A DNA stretch of 64,000 nucleotides, from NCBI RefSeq assembly GCF_016900045.1, contig NZ_JACSNP010000001.1, positions 1 through 64,000 on the forward strand. The letters run 5' to 3'. The position numbers were made by a program, and so were the translations under genes. Below, piece after piece: positions 53,962 through 57,488 of this stretch (within the stretch, counting starts at the first letter, position 1; each line of letters opens with the position of its first letter). Origin of the DNA: Fusobacterium mortiferum. Its GTDB lineage: Bacteria > Fusobacteriota > Fusobacteriia > Fusobacteriales > Fusobacteriaceae. The notes beneath the pieces are model-generated. The model was not told where the DNA came from. It saw only the letters and a program-made list of their open reading frames with translations, and ran no database searches.

Positions 53962-53982
53962 AAATGGGGGTTATAGCCCCCA
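53955..53982 (-). terminator. Terminator overlapping the end of kdpD
   Basis: TGGGGG (53965-53970) pairs with CCCCCA (53977-53982). Read leftward it is followed by TTTTTATTTAAAT. The kdpD stop codon is in the loop region. Confidence 0.75.
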
Positions 53983-55110
53983 TGGAACAACTCTTATTTC
54001 AACACCTTTAGAATGCTCTATAATTTTGTTGATTACAGATCCCTTAAAAAAAGTAGTTAATTTATTTCTCTTACTATGACCTAAAACTATTTGAGTAATT
54101 CTTTTTTCTTCTGAAAACTTCAAAATCTCTTTTACAATATTTTTACCCTGTAATCTGATTGTTTCTGCTCCTAAACTTCTAGCTAATTCCTCATGTTTTT
54201 CAATGACTTTCCAATCTTCTGGAGAGTATCCCTTAGCCAAAAATCCTATTTGTTCAACACAGATTACATAGAATTCACACTTATATTTTTGAGCAATTCT
54301 AGCTCCATATCTTATAACTTTATTAGCTTTTGGACTTGAAGAGATAGAAACAAGTACTCTTTCAGCTGTATACCAGTTAGTTTTGATATTTTTATTATTC
54401 AAGTACTCATTGAGATTATTATCTACCTCCTGTGCTATTTGACGTAAAGCAATCTCTCTTAAGGCACTTAAATTTCCTTTTCTAAAAAAATTTCGTAAAG
54501 CTTGAGAAGCTGTTTTTAAATTGTATATCTCTCCCCTTTCTAATCTTTTTTTTAAACTTTCAAATGAGATATCAATTACCTCCACCTCATCAGCTTCTGC
54601 CAAAATAGTGTCAGGAACTGTTTCTCTTACAGCTATTCCAGTGATAGTCTGAACTACATCATTTAAGCTTTCAAGATGTTGGATATTAACTGTGGTATGT
54701 ACATTTATACCAGCATTTAAAATTTCAAGAACATCTTGATATCTTTTCTCGTTTTTGCTGCCTTTTATATTTGTATGGGCTAGCTCATCAATTAGGACTA
54801 TTTCTGGTCCTCTCTCAATAATTTTTTCAATATTGACTTCTTTATATATTTTACCAGCATACTCAATCTCTTTTACAGGAATTTGTTCCAAAATTCCAAT
54901 TTGTTCAGTAGTAGCTTTTCTATCATGTGGTTCTATATATCCTATACAGATATCTTCTCCTCTTTTGACTCTAATATTAGCCTCACGAAGCATTGTATAT
55001 GTTTTTCCTACTCCTGGAGCATATCCTAAATATATCTTTAATCTTCCTTTTTTCTCCTTATTATATATTTTTAATGCTTCTTCAGGTGTAAGTCTCTTTT
55101 CTTCTGACAT
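53971..55110 (-). CDS. kdpD: Kinase-less KdpD: sensor ATPase plus universal-stress domain
   Basis: A 379-residue protein equal to the N-terminal cytoplasmic part of KdpD. The KdpD domain has Walker A YAPGVGKT (30-37) and IVLIDELAHTN (104-114). A universal-stress domain follows from about 250 to the end, with the nucleotide motif LGHSKRNKL...GSV. The four membrane helices, GAF and histidine kinase parts of full KdpD are absent, and the protein ends cleanly with its own terminator. In S. aureus the KdpD stress domain binds cyclic-di-AMP; here the mRNA also has a cyclic-di-AMP riboswitch. Divergent from kdpFABC; no kdpE is visible. Confidence 0.93.
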   Translation of the reverse strand: MSEEKRLTPEEALKIYNKEKKGRLKIYLGYAPGVGKTYTMLREANIRVKRGEDICIGYIEPHDRKATTEQIGILEQIPVKEIEYAGKIYKEVNIEKIIERGPEIVLIDELAHTNIKGSKNEKRYQDVLEILNAGINVHTTVNIQHLESLNDVVQTITGIAVRETVPDTILAEADEVEVIDISFESLKKRLERGEIYNLKTASQALRNFFRKGNLSALREIALRQIAQEVDNNLNEYLNNKNIKTNWYTAERVLVSISSSPKANKVIRYGARIAQKYKCEFYVICVEQIGFLAKGYSPEDWKVIEKHEELARSLGAETIRLQGKNIVKEILKFSEEKRITQIVLGHSKRNKLTTFFKGSVINKIIEHSKGVEIRVVPWGL

Positions 55111-55227
55111 AGATATCTCCCTAAATTAAAAAATTTAAATAAAACTTAGTTTTTAAGCTAAGATAGGAGTAAAATAAACAAACTCTAAAACATTTAAATA
55201 ATATCATAAATTACCTCTAGACTTTGT

Positions 55228-55262
55228 AAAAAAATAACACCATAACAAAAAGTCATGGTGTT
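55228..55262 (-). terminator. Expression-platform terminator of the c-di-AMP riboswitch
   Basis: AACACCATAAC (55236-55246) pairs with GTCATGGTGTT (55252-55262) with one G-T pair. Read leftward the stem is followed by ATTTTTTT. It lies between the aptamer and the kdpD start. Confidence 0.9.
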
Positions 55263-55267
55263 GATAC

Positions 55268-55412
55268 TATACAAAACCAGGCTCTTTTCAATGCTGACGA
55301 GGTTAGCTGTCGGGCTCGGATTGAAAAGTATCCTATTCTCTAAAAGAGAAATACGCCCCAAGAAGGTTGGGTCCCCCGCTCTATTTAAAATAGATTAAGC
55401 GAATTGGTAATA
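55268..55412 (-). promoter_or_regulatory. Cyclic-di-AMP (ydaO/yuaA-type) riboswitch upstream of kdpD
   Basis: Read leftward, the core segments of this riboswitch class are present in order: AATTCGCTTAATCT, AGAGCGGGGGACCCAA, TTGGGGCGTAT, CCGAGCCCGACAGCTAACC and TCGTCAGC, with a helix CTTTTCAAT/ATTGAAAAG around the last part. This class binds cyclic-di-AMP and usually turns genes for potassium uptake and wall enzymes off. With the terminator next to it, binding should stop kdpD transcription. Edges of the aptamer are approximate. Confidence 0.93.
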
Positions 55413-55427
55413 TTCTTTTACAGGTAA

Positions 55428-55455
55428 ATTATACTCTTAAATAACAAAAAGTCAA
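55428..55455 (-). promoter_or_regulatory. kdpD promoter
   Basis: Read leftward: TTGACT (55455-55450), a 16-bp spacer and TATAAT (55433-55428). The aptamer begins within about 20 nt of the start. Confidence 0.75.
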
Positions 55456-55478: not shown

Positions 55479-55507
55479 TTGACAAAAAAATAAAAAAGTG
55501 ATATGAT
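55479..55507 (+). promoter_or_regulatory. kdpFABC promoter
   Basis: TTGACA (55479-55484), a 17-bp spacer and TATGAT (55502-55507), back to back with the kdpD promoter. Start near 55514 gives a leader of about 250 nt before kdpF. Confidence 0.7.
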
Positions 55508-55587
55508 TCAAAATCATAAAACAAAACCTCTAGACATTTAAGATATATTACAAAAAAATATAATTTTGATATATTTTATAAAAATTA

Positions 55588-55723
55588 AGTTTATTCAGAT
55601 ATTTATTTATCCGAGTTAATTTATGAAGGGGATTTATTCTGAAAATTTATACCTATGTAATAAACTGTTTTTTAATATTCTTAGAATAAGGATATTAGGG
55701 GCAGTTTTTATTTTGCTTTTTTT
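55588..55723 (+). promoter_or_regulatory. kdpFABC leader: candidate attenuator with terminator and competing helix
   Basis: A hairpin with arms 55662-55683 and 55687-55707 (loop GAA, one bulged T, several G-T pairs) is followed by the T-rich tract 55705-55723, like an intrinsic terminator. Its 5' arm overlaps AATAAACT (55659-55666), which can pair perfectly with AGTTTATT (55588-55595). That helix would enclose about 63 nt holding CAGA (55596-55599) and TCTG (55638-55641). The two folds exclude each other. No known riboswitch class is recognised here. Confidence 0.5.
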
Positions 55724-55763
55724 AAGTTAAAAGCCTAAAAGTTGAATAATTTAGGAGGGAGAA

Positions 55764-55841
55764 ATGTTAATTTTAGGAATTATTGTATTTTTACTTTTTA
55801 TTTATTTAATTTATGCACTATTCAATCCAGATAAATTTTAA
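55764..55841 (+). CDS. kdpF: KdpF small subunit of the potassium ATPase
   Basis: A 25-residue hydrophobic peptide, MLILGIIVFLLFIYLIYALF then NPDKF. KdpF is a single-pass membrane peptide that stabilises the KdpABC complex; the closing NPDKF-like ending is typical. RBS AGGAGGG (55753-55759) lies 4 bp before the ATG, and kdpA starts 15 bp later. Confidence 0.9.
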   Translation: MLILGIIVFLLFIYLIYALFNPDKF

Positions 55842-55856
55842 GGAGGAAATTTTATT

Positions 55857-57488
55857 ATGAATTTATTAAGTTTAATACTTTTTTTATGTGCGTTCATTAT
55901 TTTAATAGTTCCAATCGGAAAGTATCTATCTAAGCTAATAGCACATGAAAAAACATTAGGAGAAAGATTATTTACAACTATAGAGGTTCCAATTTTTAAA
56001 TTATTAAAATGTAAAAATGAAAATATGGGACTGAAGAGCTATATTGTATCATTTTTAAGTGTTAATTTTATTATGTTTATCTTTACATATATAATTTTAT
56101 ATATACAAGGGGATTCTCTGTCTCTAGCTTTTAATACAGCAATAAGTTTTGTAACAAATACAAATTTACAACACTATTCTGGCGAGGTCTTAAATAGTAC
56201 TATTTCAAGATTGATATTGATAAACCTTATGTTTACCTCAGCAGCAACTGGGATGGTAATTTGTATGGCTGTAATAAGAGGAATTATGGGAATTAAGCTT
56301 GGTAACTTTTATGAGGATTTAGTGAAGGTGGTTATAAGATTATTACTTCCTATCTCATTAGTAGTGGCAATACTTTTAGTAATTTGTGGCTTACCTCAAA
56401 CATTTGATAATCAAGTAATAGTAAGAACTTTAGAAGGAAAATATCAAGCCATAGCTTTAGGACCTGTAGCAGCATGGGAAGCAATAAAGCATTTAGGAAA
56501 TAATGGAGGAGGATTATTCACAGCTAACTCTGCTCATCCATTTGAAAATATTTCAATATGGTCTAACTATATAGAGATGTTATCTATGATGGTATTTCCA
56601 GGGGCAACAATAATAGCTTTTGGAATTGTAGCTAAAAATAAAAAGCAAGGTTGGTATATTTTTATCTCTGTATTTATTTTATTTATATTATCATTCTTTA
56701 TGATATATCATTTTGAAAAACAAGGAACACCAATTTTAAAAGAATTAGGGATATCAGGAATAAATATGGAGGGAAAAGAAGTAAGGTTTGGATTATTTGC
56801 TTCTACACTATTTACTAATATAACAACTTCATTTACAACAGGAAGCATAAATAATATGCATGATTCACTTACACCATTAGCCGGTATGTTTGCACTAGGA
56901 AATATGATGCTTAACTGTATTTTCGGTGGTAAGGGAGTTGGATTTATAAATATACTAATGTATATGATTTTAGGAGTATTTTTATGTGGACTAATGGTAG
57001 GAAGAACTCCAGAATTTTTTGGTAAAAAAGTTGAGGCTAAAGAGATTCAAATTATAACATTTTTAATACTATTACATCCATTAATTATATTATTACCAAG
57101 TGCGATATCATTGATGGTGAGATATGGGTATGAGGGGATATCAACTGCAGGTTTTCACGGAATAACTCAGGTATTGTATGAATATGTATCAAGTGCAGCT
57201 AACAATGGTTCTGGATTTGAAGGGTTAAAAGATAATACTTCTTTTTGGAATATTATGACAGGAATAGTTATTCTCTTAGGAAGATATGTAAATATGGTAT
57301 TAATGACAATCGTTGGATACTCTTTTTATAAGAAAAAAGTTGTACCTACAACTGAGACAAGTTTCAGAACAGATAATATAATATTTTCATTGGTGTTAAT
57401 ATTTATAATATTAACAATAGGTGCTCTTACATTTTTACCAGCTTTAGCATTAGGACCTATTGCAGAGCACTTAAGTATTTGGAGGTAA
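55857..57488 (+). CDS. kdpA: Potassium-transporting ATPase potassium-binding subunit KdpA
   Basis: The 543-residue channel-like subunit that selects potassium in the membrane. About ten helices are visible; the pore loops show NTNLQHYSGE, GNNGGGLFTANSAHPFEN and TTSFTTGSINNMHD, with AANNGSGFEGL as the last. KdpA resembles potassium channels with four pore repeats. RBS AGGAGG precedes ATG. kdpB starts 7 bp after the stop. The length is near the usual 555-560. Confidence 0.97.
   Translation: MNLLSLILFLCAFIILIVPIGKYLSKLIAHEKTLGERLFTTIEVPIFKLLKCKNENMGLKSYIVSFLSVNFIMFIFTYIILYIQGDSLSLAFNTAISFVTNTNLQHYSGEVLNSTISRLILINLMFTSAATGMVICMAVIRGIMGIKLGNFYEDLVKVVIRLLLPISLVVAILLVICGLPQTFDNQVIVRTLEGKYQAIALGPVAAWEAIKHLGNNGGGLFTANSAHPFENISIWSNYIEMLSMMVFPGATIIAFGIVAKNKKQGWYIFISVFILFILSFFMIYHFEKQGTPILKELGISGINMEGKEVRFGLFASTLFTNITTSFTTGSINNMHDSLTPLAGMFALGNMMLNCIFGGKGVGFINILMYMILGVFLCGLMVGRTPEFFGKKVEAKEIQIITFLILLHPLIILLPSAISLMVRYGYEGISTAGFHGITQVLYEYVSSAANNGSGFEGLKDNTSFWNIMTGIVILLGRYVNMVLMTIVGYSFYKKKVVPTTETSFRTDNIIFSLVLIFIILTIGALTFLPALALGPIAEHLSIWR

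What the first reader, a model, noticed from the sequence alone, without database searches (positions are those of the whole stretch)
55508..55763. Candidate new RNA switch in the kdpFABC leader
The kdp promoter gives a leader of about 250 nt. It holds a long hairpin (arms 55662-55683 and 55687-55707, loop GAA, one bulge) followed by a T-rich tract. The 5' arm of this hairpin overlaps AATAAACT (55659-55666), which pairs perfectly with AGTTTATT (55588-55595). If that helix forms, the terminator cannot. The enclosed 63 nt have further pairing (CAGA with TCTG; ATCC with GGAT). This is the layout of a riboswitch of the on type, and no known class fits. A ligand tied to potassium or osmotic state would be logical. 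Caution: four successive G-T pairs weaken the stem.
Basis: partly seen in the sequence, partly recalled or inferred. Interest (0 to 1): 0.78.

Follow-up and report, generated by a model that had tools for sequence, protein, structure and literature searches.

The report
Potassium-pump leader RNA paired across strands
The potassium-pump genes of this Fusobacterium-like bacterium start with a conserved regulatory RNA leader that ends in a real stop signal; it is probably not an independent small-molecule switch as first proposed, but its first bases match, in step across seven related species, an RNA made from the opposite strand under control of a known c-di-AMP switch.

Summary
The kdpFABC leader is real. 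A promoter at 55479-55507 gives about 250 nt before kdpF. The terminator hairpin (55657-55711 plus a U tract) is far stronger than shuffles and is kept in a relative (G010) whose upper stem has a different sequence. Upstream of it, an 83-nt block (55586-55668) differs from G010 at only 3 positions, fewer than any equally long stretch of kdpA, so it is under selection. The proposed antiterminator AGTTTATT/AATAAACT is at chance level (43.5% of shuffles do as well). It never varies, so covariation cannot test it, and it is energetically poor in G010. Five other Fusobacterium species with kdp lack the block. An independent riboswitch is therefore not shown. The sequence just past its terminator (55213-55222, minus strand) is complementary to the 5' end of the kdp leader (55526-55535). 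The same pairing recurs in all seven kdp-plus-ydaO species (9-16 bp) with changes on both sides at six positions. Best reading: an attenuator leader whose input may be this ydaO read-through RNA. The pairing is well supported. Its effect is inferred.

The parts
55479..55507 (+). kdp promoter TTGACA-17-TATGAT with TG before the -10
   Evidence: an equivalent promoter is seen by eye in the relatives
55513..55763 (+). kdpFABC leader (start inferred from promoter spacing)
55526..55535 (+). R2, ACCTCTAGAC near the 5' end of the leader; complementary to the ydaO read-through RNA; also pairs in cis with purine-rich sites
55527..55531 (+). P1 5' strand CCUCU (pairs with 55627-55631)
   Evidence: three-way junction -18.8 vs -12.1 +/- 2.8 in shuffles, 20/1000
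55627..55631 (+). P1 3' strand AGGGG
55539..55578 (+). P2 hairpin, variable between species
55586..55623 (+). P3 hairpin, conserved, with a 1x1 mismatch (A.C here, U.U in G010)
55586..55668 (+). conserved block, 80 of 83 bases identical in G010
   Evidence: found only in G000, G072 and G010
55588..55595 (+). proposed antiterminator 5' arm AGTTTATT
   Evidence: present, but chance-level pairing
55659..55666 (+). proposed antiterminator 3' arm AATAAACT, shared with the terminator base
55657..55711 (+). intrinsic terminator hairpin
   Evidence: 0/1000 shuffles; kept in G010 with changed sequence
55705..55723 (+). U-rich tract of the terminator (TTTTTATTTTGCTTTTTTT)
55623..55730 (+). ORF of 35 codons over the terminator, no good Shine-Dalgarno site; only 16 codons in G010
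55764..55841 (+). kdpF, 25 aa
   Evidence: Pfam Potass_KdpF
55857..57488 (+). kdpA (kdpB and kdpC follow)
55428..55455 (-). promoter of the opposite transcript
55277..55411 (-). ydaO c-di-AMP riboswitch aptamer
   Evidence: Rfam RF00379, 92.6 bits, E 1.8e-20
55236..55262 (-). terminator of the ydaO riboswitch
55213..55222 (-). R1, GUCUAGAGGU just past the ydaO terminator (read-through RNA only); complementary to 55526-55535
53971..55110 (-). gene under ydaO control: KdpD sensor domain plus Usp, no kinase
   Evidence: Pfam PF02702 and PF00582

Best explanation
The kdpFABC mRNA starts with a transcription-attenuation leader that ends in an intrinsic terminator (terminator and selection on the preceding 83 nt: shown by computation). 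In this species the ground state is predicted to be a three-way junction closed by CCUCU/AGGGG, followed by the terminator. The most likely input is RNA rather than a ligand bound by this leader. The neighbouring minus-strand transcript carries a ydaO riboswitch; when c-di-AMP is low (potassium short) it reads through its terminator and exposes a stretch complementary to the first 25 nt of the kdp leader. Pairing there would take the 5' CCUC strand away from its cis partner and shift the leader towards expression of the pump. The complementarity and its covariation across seven species are shown. That the two RNAs meet, and the direction of the effect, are inferred.
For: Terminator. Block conservation of 80/83, against at most 74/83 in any 83-nt window of kdpA and 60% identity at fourfold sites. 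ydaO on the other strand at all seven kdp loci of the genus. Complementary stretch just past the ydaO terminator in all seven, 9-16 bp. Own-species pairing is best or near best in the duplex matrix. Six columns vary on both sides while staying paired in 7 of 7 species, and one column shows all four Watson-Crick types; 59 of 63 pairs, reached by 6 of 5040 species permutations. Position-restricted shuffles combined over four clades give p about 7e-7, post hoc; unrestricted, 3e-4. The five ydaO loci without kdp whose downstream sequence was printed lack the stretch. Occluding the 5' end in the window sequence raises the antiterminator helix from 0.03-0.18 to 0.5-0.9 before the terminator forms. 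The linked two-component system is lost in this species, and where present its response regulators lack a DNA-binding domain. In B. thuringiensis a c-di-AMP riboswitch controls kdpFABC directly and represses it when bound (PMC6488665).
Against: In G010 occlusion of the 5' end does not stably populate the antiterminator (0.28 falling to 0.01). Occlusion hardly changes kdpF Shine-Dalgarno accessibility in any species. Part of the match (CCUC/GAGG) is expected of any Shine-Dalgarno-like pair. Single-species p values are modest, the anchor was chosen after seeing the match, and the four larger-genome species are close relatives. No RNA data were available.
Confidence: 0.38

Rival explanations
1. 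A new ligand-binding riboswitch class: the 83-nt block plus CCUCU/AGGGG is an aptamer and the terminator is its expression platform.
For: High sequence conservation of the block with only 3 changes; three-way junction beats shuffles, 20/1000; near-equal alternative folds in the window sequence; no Rfam match on that strand.
Against: Only two species; no covarying pair inside the block; P3 contains a mismatch in both species; antiterminator at chance level and poor in G010; no second gene context; AT-rich and low in information.
Confidence: 0.2
2. Translation-coupled attenuation: a short upstream ORF ends in or crosses the terminator, so translation of it prevents termination.
For: In the four larger-genome species an upstream ORF with a good Shine-Dalgarno site ends inside a strong hairpin; in the window an ORF at 55623-55730 spans the terminator, and in G010 it stops in the terminator 5' arm.
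Against: The window ORF has no good Shine-Dalgarno site. All 13 conserved degenerate codons are identical between window and G010, expected at 0.002 from kdpA, so the block is conserved as nucleic acid and not as a peptide. The peptides are unrelated.
Confidence: 0.14
3. The reverse direction: the terminated kdp leader is a small RNA that binds the minus-strand mRNA and lowers synthesis of the kinase or KdpD-Usp protein.
For: The minus-strand partner looks like a Shine-Dalgarno site (AAAGAGG, AAAGGGG, TAGAGG), and in two of the larger-genome species a second 10-nt match, TTTCACCATT, to the start region of the kinase gene is the longest shared run.
Against: In the window and G007 the site is about 100 nt or more from the KdpD start codon; no RNA data.
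Confidence: 0.14
4. The repeated CCTCT stretches are DNA sites for a protein regulator, and the leader is an unregulated terminator.
For: A direct repeat on the same strand flanks both promoters, about 313 bp apart.
Against: The sequence changes greatly between species yet stays matched within each; the linked response regulators have no DNA-binding domain.
Confidence: 0.12

Closest known systems
c-di-AMP (ydaO, RF00379) riboswitch of the Bacillus thuringiensis kdpFABC operon (PMC6488665)
   Same: Kdp pump, a truncated KdpD without kinase, and a c-di-AMP riboswitch in the same locus
   Different: Here ydaO is on the opposite strand, in front of the KdpD-Usp gene or a histidine-kinase operon; the kdpF leader itself has no ydaO
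Trans-acting riboswitch RNAs such as SreA of Listeria (from memory; a terminated riboswitch fragment pairing with a target Shine-Dalgarno region is described in general in PMC9943018)
   Same: A riboswitch-controlled RNA would act by base pairing on a second transcript
   Different: Here the pairing segment lies past the terminator, so only read-through RNA carries it, and the target is the divergent neighbour
Antisense-acting riboswitches (PMC9943018)
   Same: A riboswitch on the opposite strand is linked to the regulated gene
   Different: There the riboswitch lies at the 3' end and is transcribed through the target; here the transcripts diverge and do not overlap
Small hydrophobic peptides upstream of kdpA (kdpZYABCXDE of Clostridium acetobutylicum, cited in PMC5401905)
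   Same: Short hydrophobic ORFs precede kdpFABC in the relatives
   Different: The window has no such ORF with a good ribosome site; homology was not tested

Membership tests
Metabolite riboswitch (new class) in the kdpF leader | Conserved aptamer with covarying helices across species | tested here: not met
   Block conserved in two species only, no compensatory change inside it
Metabolite riboswitch (new class) in the kdpF leader | Mutually exclusive antiterminator and terminator | tested here: inconclusive
   Exclusive and near equal in energy in the window, but chance-level and weak in G010
Metabolite riboswitch (new class) in the kdpF leader | Direct ligand binding | not testable with these tools
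   needs in-line probing
Transcription attenuator leader | Intrinsic terminator between promoter and first gene | tested here: met
   0/1000 shuffles in both species, followed by a U tract
Transcription attenuator leader | Regulated read-through | not testable with these tools
   needs Term-seq or reporter data
ydaO c-di-AMP riboswitch (RF00379), plus-strand leader | Score above the gathering threshold | tested here: not met
   No match on the plus strand
ydaO c-di-AMP riboswitch (RF00379), minus strand 55277-55411 | Score above the gathering threshold, full-length aptamer | tested here: met
   92.6 bits vs 38, model 1-134 of 134
Trans-acting riboswitch-controlled RNA | Conserved, covarying complementarity to a second RNA | tested here: met
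   Seven species, six two-sided variable columns all paired
Trans-acting riboswitch-controlled RNA | Demonstrated effect on the target RNA | not testable with these tools
   folding predictions of the effect are mixed

The most novel reading that the evidence does not exclude
A c-di-AMP riboswitch controls two divergent operons at once: in cis its own KdpD or kinase gene, and in trans the kdpFABC operon, through a short segment of its read-through RNA that pairs with the 5' end of the divergent kdp leader.
Probability: 0.28. Interest if true: 0.8.

Novelty: new variant of a known kind. Interest (0 to 1): 0.5.

Why it matters
If true, one c-di-AMP sensor sets both arms of a divergent potassium-uptake locus by RNA pairing, which would explain control of kdp in bacteria that have lost the KdpD kinase and have no linked DNA-binding regulator. 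Riboswitches acting on a non-overlapping neighbour through read-through RNA would be a rare design that can be tested directly with compensatory changes in a reporter.

Tried and rejected
DNA search of the block in 98 genomes of the phylum: only own species and G010; the other hits are AT-rich noise. A covariance model of the block gave the same result plus one marginal hit (33 bits) over sequence unlike the block, taken as chance. Pattern scan of viral contigs: none. Rfam at permissive threshold on the leader: only sub-threshold chance hits. A scan for more kdpA loci with names returned one Fusobacterium MAG already held. Idea that 5'-end pairing opens the kdpF Shine-Dalgarno site: occlusion changes accessibility little in all seven species. 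Idea that 5'-end pairing drives the antiterminator: works in the window, fails in G010. Coding explanation of the block: no synonymous changes, so rejected. Papers: none found describing a kdp leader in Fusobacteria.

Full report
Observation. The leader lies between a good plus-strand promoter (55479-55507) and kdpF at 55764 (KdpF by Pfam). The hairpin is highly significant (-16.6 kcal/mol against -6.5 +/- 1.9, 0 of 1000 shuffles). In G010, the closest other species with kdp, it is equally strong although its upper stem is different in sequence and the window's G-U pairs are A-U pairs there. The same species' second genome, G072, also turns one G-U into A-U. This is structure kept through change, so the terminator is real.

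Conservation. Between window and G010 the 83 nt before the terminator (55586-55668) differ at three positions. kdpA is 76.5% identical at the DNA level, its fourfold sites 60%, and its best 83-nt window has 74 matches. The block is therefore selected as nucleic acid. It is not selected as a peptide: an ORF from 55623 shows 13 of 13 identical degenerate codons, expected at 0.002 from kdpA. The block exists only in this species and G010. The other five species with kdp have a different leader with short hydrophobic upstream ORFs.

The proposed switch. The antiterminator arms are invariant, so there is no covariation to count. A pairing run as long arises in 43.5% of shuffles. In the window the two folds are close in energy before the terminator is complete, but in G010 the antiterminator is rarely populated. 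The predicted ground state is a three-way junction of CCUCU/AGGGG, a variable hairpin and a conserved hairpin (20 of 1000 shuffles as good). A ligand-binding riboswitch is possible but has no direct support.

The other strand. Rfam finds a c-di-AMP riboswitch at 55277-55411 on the minus strand, 92.6 bits. All seven kdp loci in the genus have it at this place. It precedes either a gene for the KdpD sensor domain plus Usp without kinase (this species and G007) or a histidine kinase, response regulator(s) and KdpD-Usp operon. The response regulators carry no DNA-binding domain.

Cross-strand match. Immediately past the ydaO terminator, the minus-strand RNA reads GUCUAGAGGU; the kdp leader begins with ...ACCUCUAGAC. 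The other species have AGCUAGAGG with CCUCUAGCU, a 16-base match in G007, and ACAAAGAGG with CCUCUUUGU, extended in G008 and G003 in step on both sides. Nine consecutive columns are paired in all seven species; six of them vary on both sides, and one shows all four Watson-Crick types. Only 6 of 5040 permutations of species reach the observed number of pairs. Longest-match tests give p about 3e-4 over four clades without, and 7e-7 with, restriction to the two positions; the restriction was set after seeing the match. The five ydaO loci outside kdp whose downstream sequence was printed (in front of an osmoprotectant-type transporter, named by eye) lack the stretch.

Mechanism. Read-through of ydaO happens when c-di-AMP is low; c-di-AMP represses kdpFABC through such a switch in B. 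thuringiensis (PMC6488665). The read-through RNA could bind the 5' end of the kdp leader and free the partner of CCUC. In the window this favours the antiterminator (0.03-0.18 to 0.5-0.9). In G010 it does not hold, and access to the kdpF ribosome site barely changes in any species. The pairing is thus well supported and its consequence is not. The reverse action, leader RNA on the minus-strand mRNA, is also possible.

Verdict. The leader is a conserved regulatory leader with a genuine terminator. The claim of a new riboswitch class is not supported beyond possibility. The most interesting feature of the region is the covarying complementarity between the two divergent transcripts.

Noticed in passing
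window 55277-55411 (-): Strong c-di-AMP (ydaO) riboswitch in front of a KdpD gene that has only the sensor and Usp domains.
   Followed up: yes
L057, L058: In G010 and G002 the ydaO-controlled operon begins with a histidine kinase and response regulator(s) without DNA-binding domain (receiver plus TPR); the kinase has no match in the window species or in the incomplete genome G007.
   Followed up: partly
L002, L003, L004, L005, L006, L009 upstream of kdpF: Short hydrophobic ORFs with good ribosome sites (for example MIKLFSLLSAALFVLIFFYILRFLVF) precede kdpF in the relatives; in the four larger-genome species the stop codon lies inside a strong hairpin.
   Followed up: partly
L008, L009 (G001): The kdp locus of G001 looks broken: kdpA is split with a stop, the kinase and KdpD matches are also in pieces.
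   Followed up: no
L034, L038, L039, L040, L041: ydaO elements outside the kdp locus sit in front of a gene that looks like an osmoprotectant transporter permease (named by eye).
   Followed up: no
window 55731-55756 (+): A small hairpin (CCTAAA/TTTAGG) overlaps the kdpF Shine-Dalgarno site in the window species; in G010 short ORFs lie between the terminator and kdpF instead.
   Followed up: no
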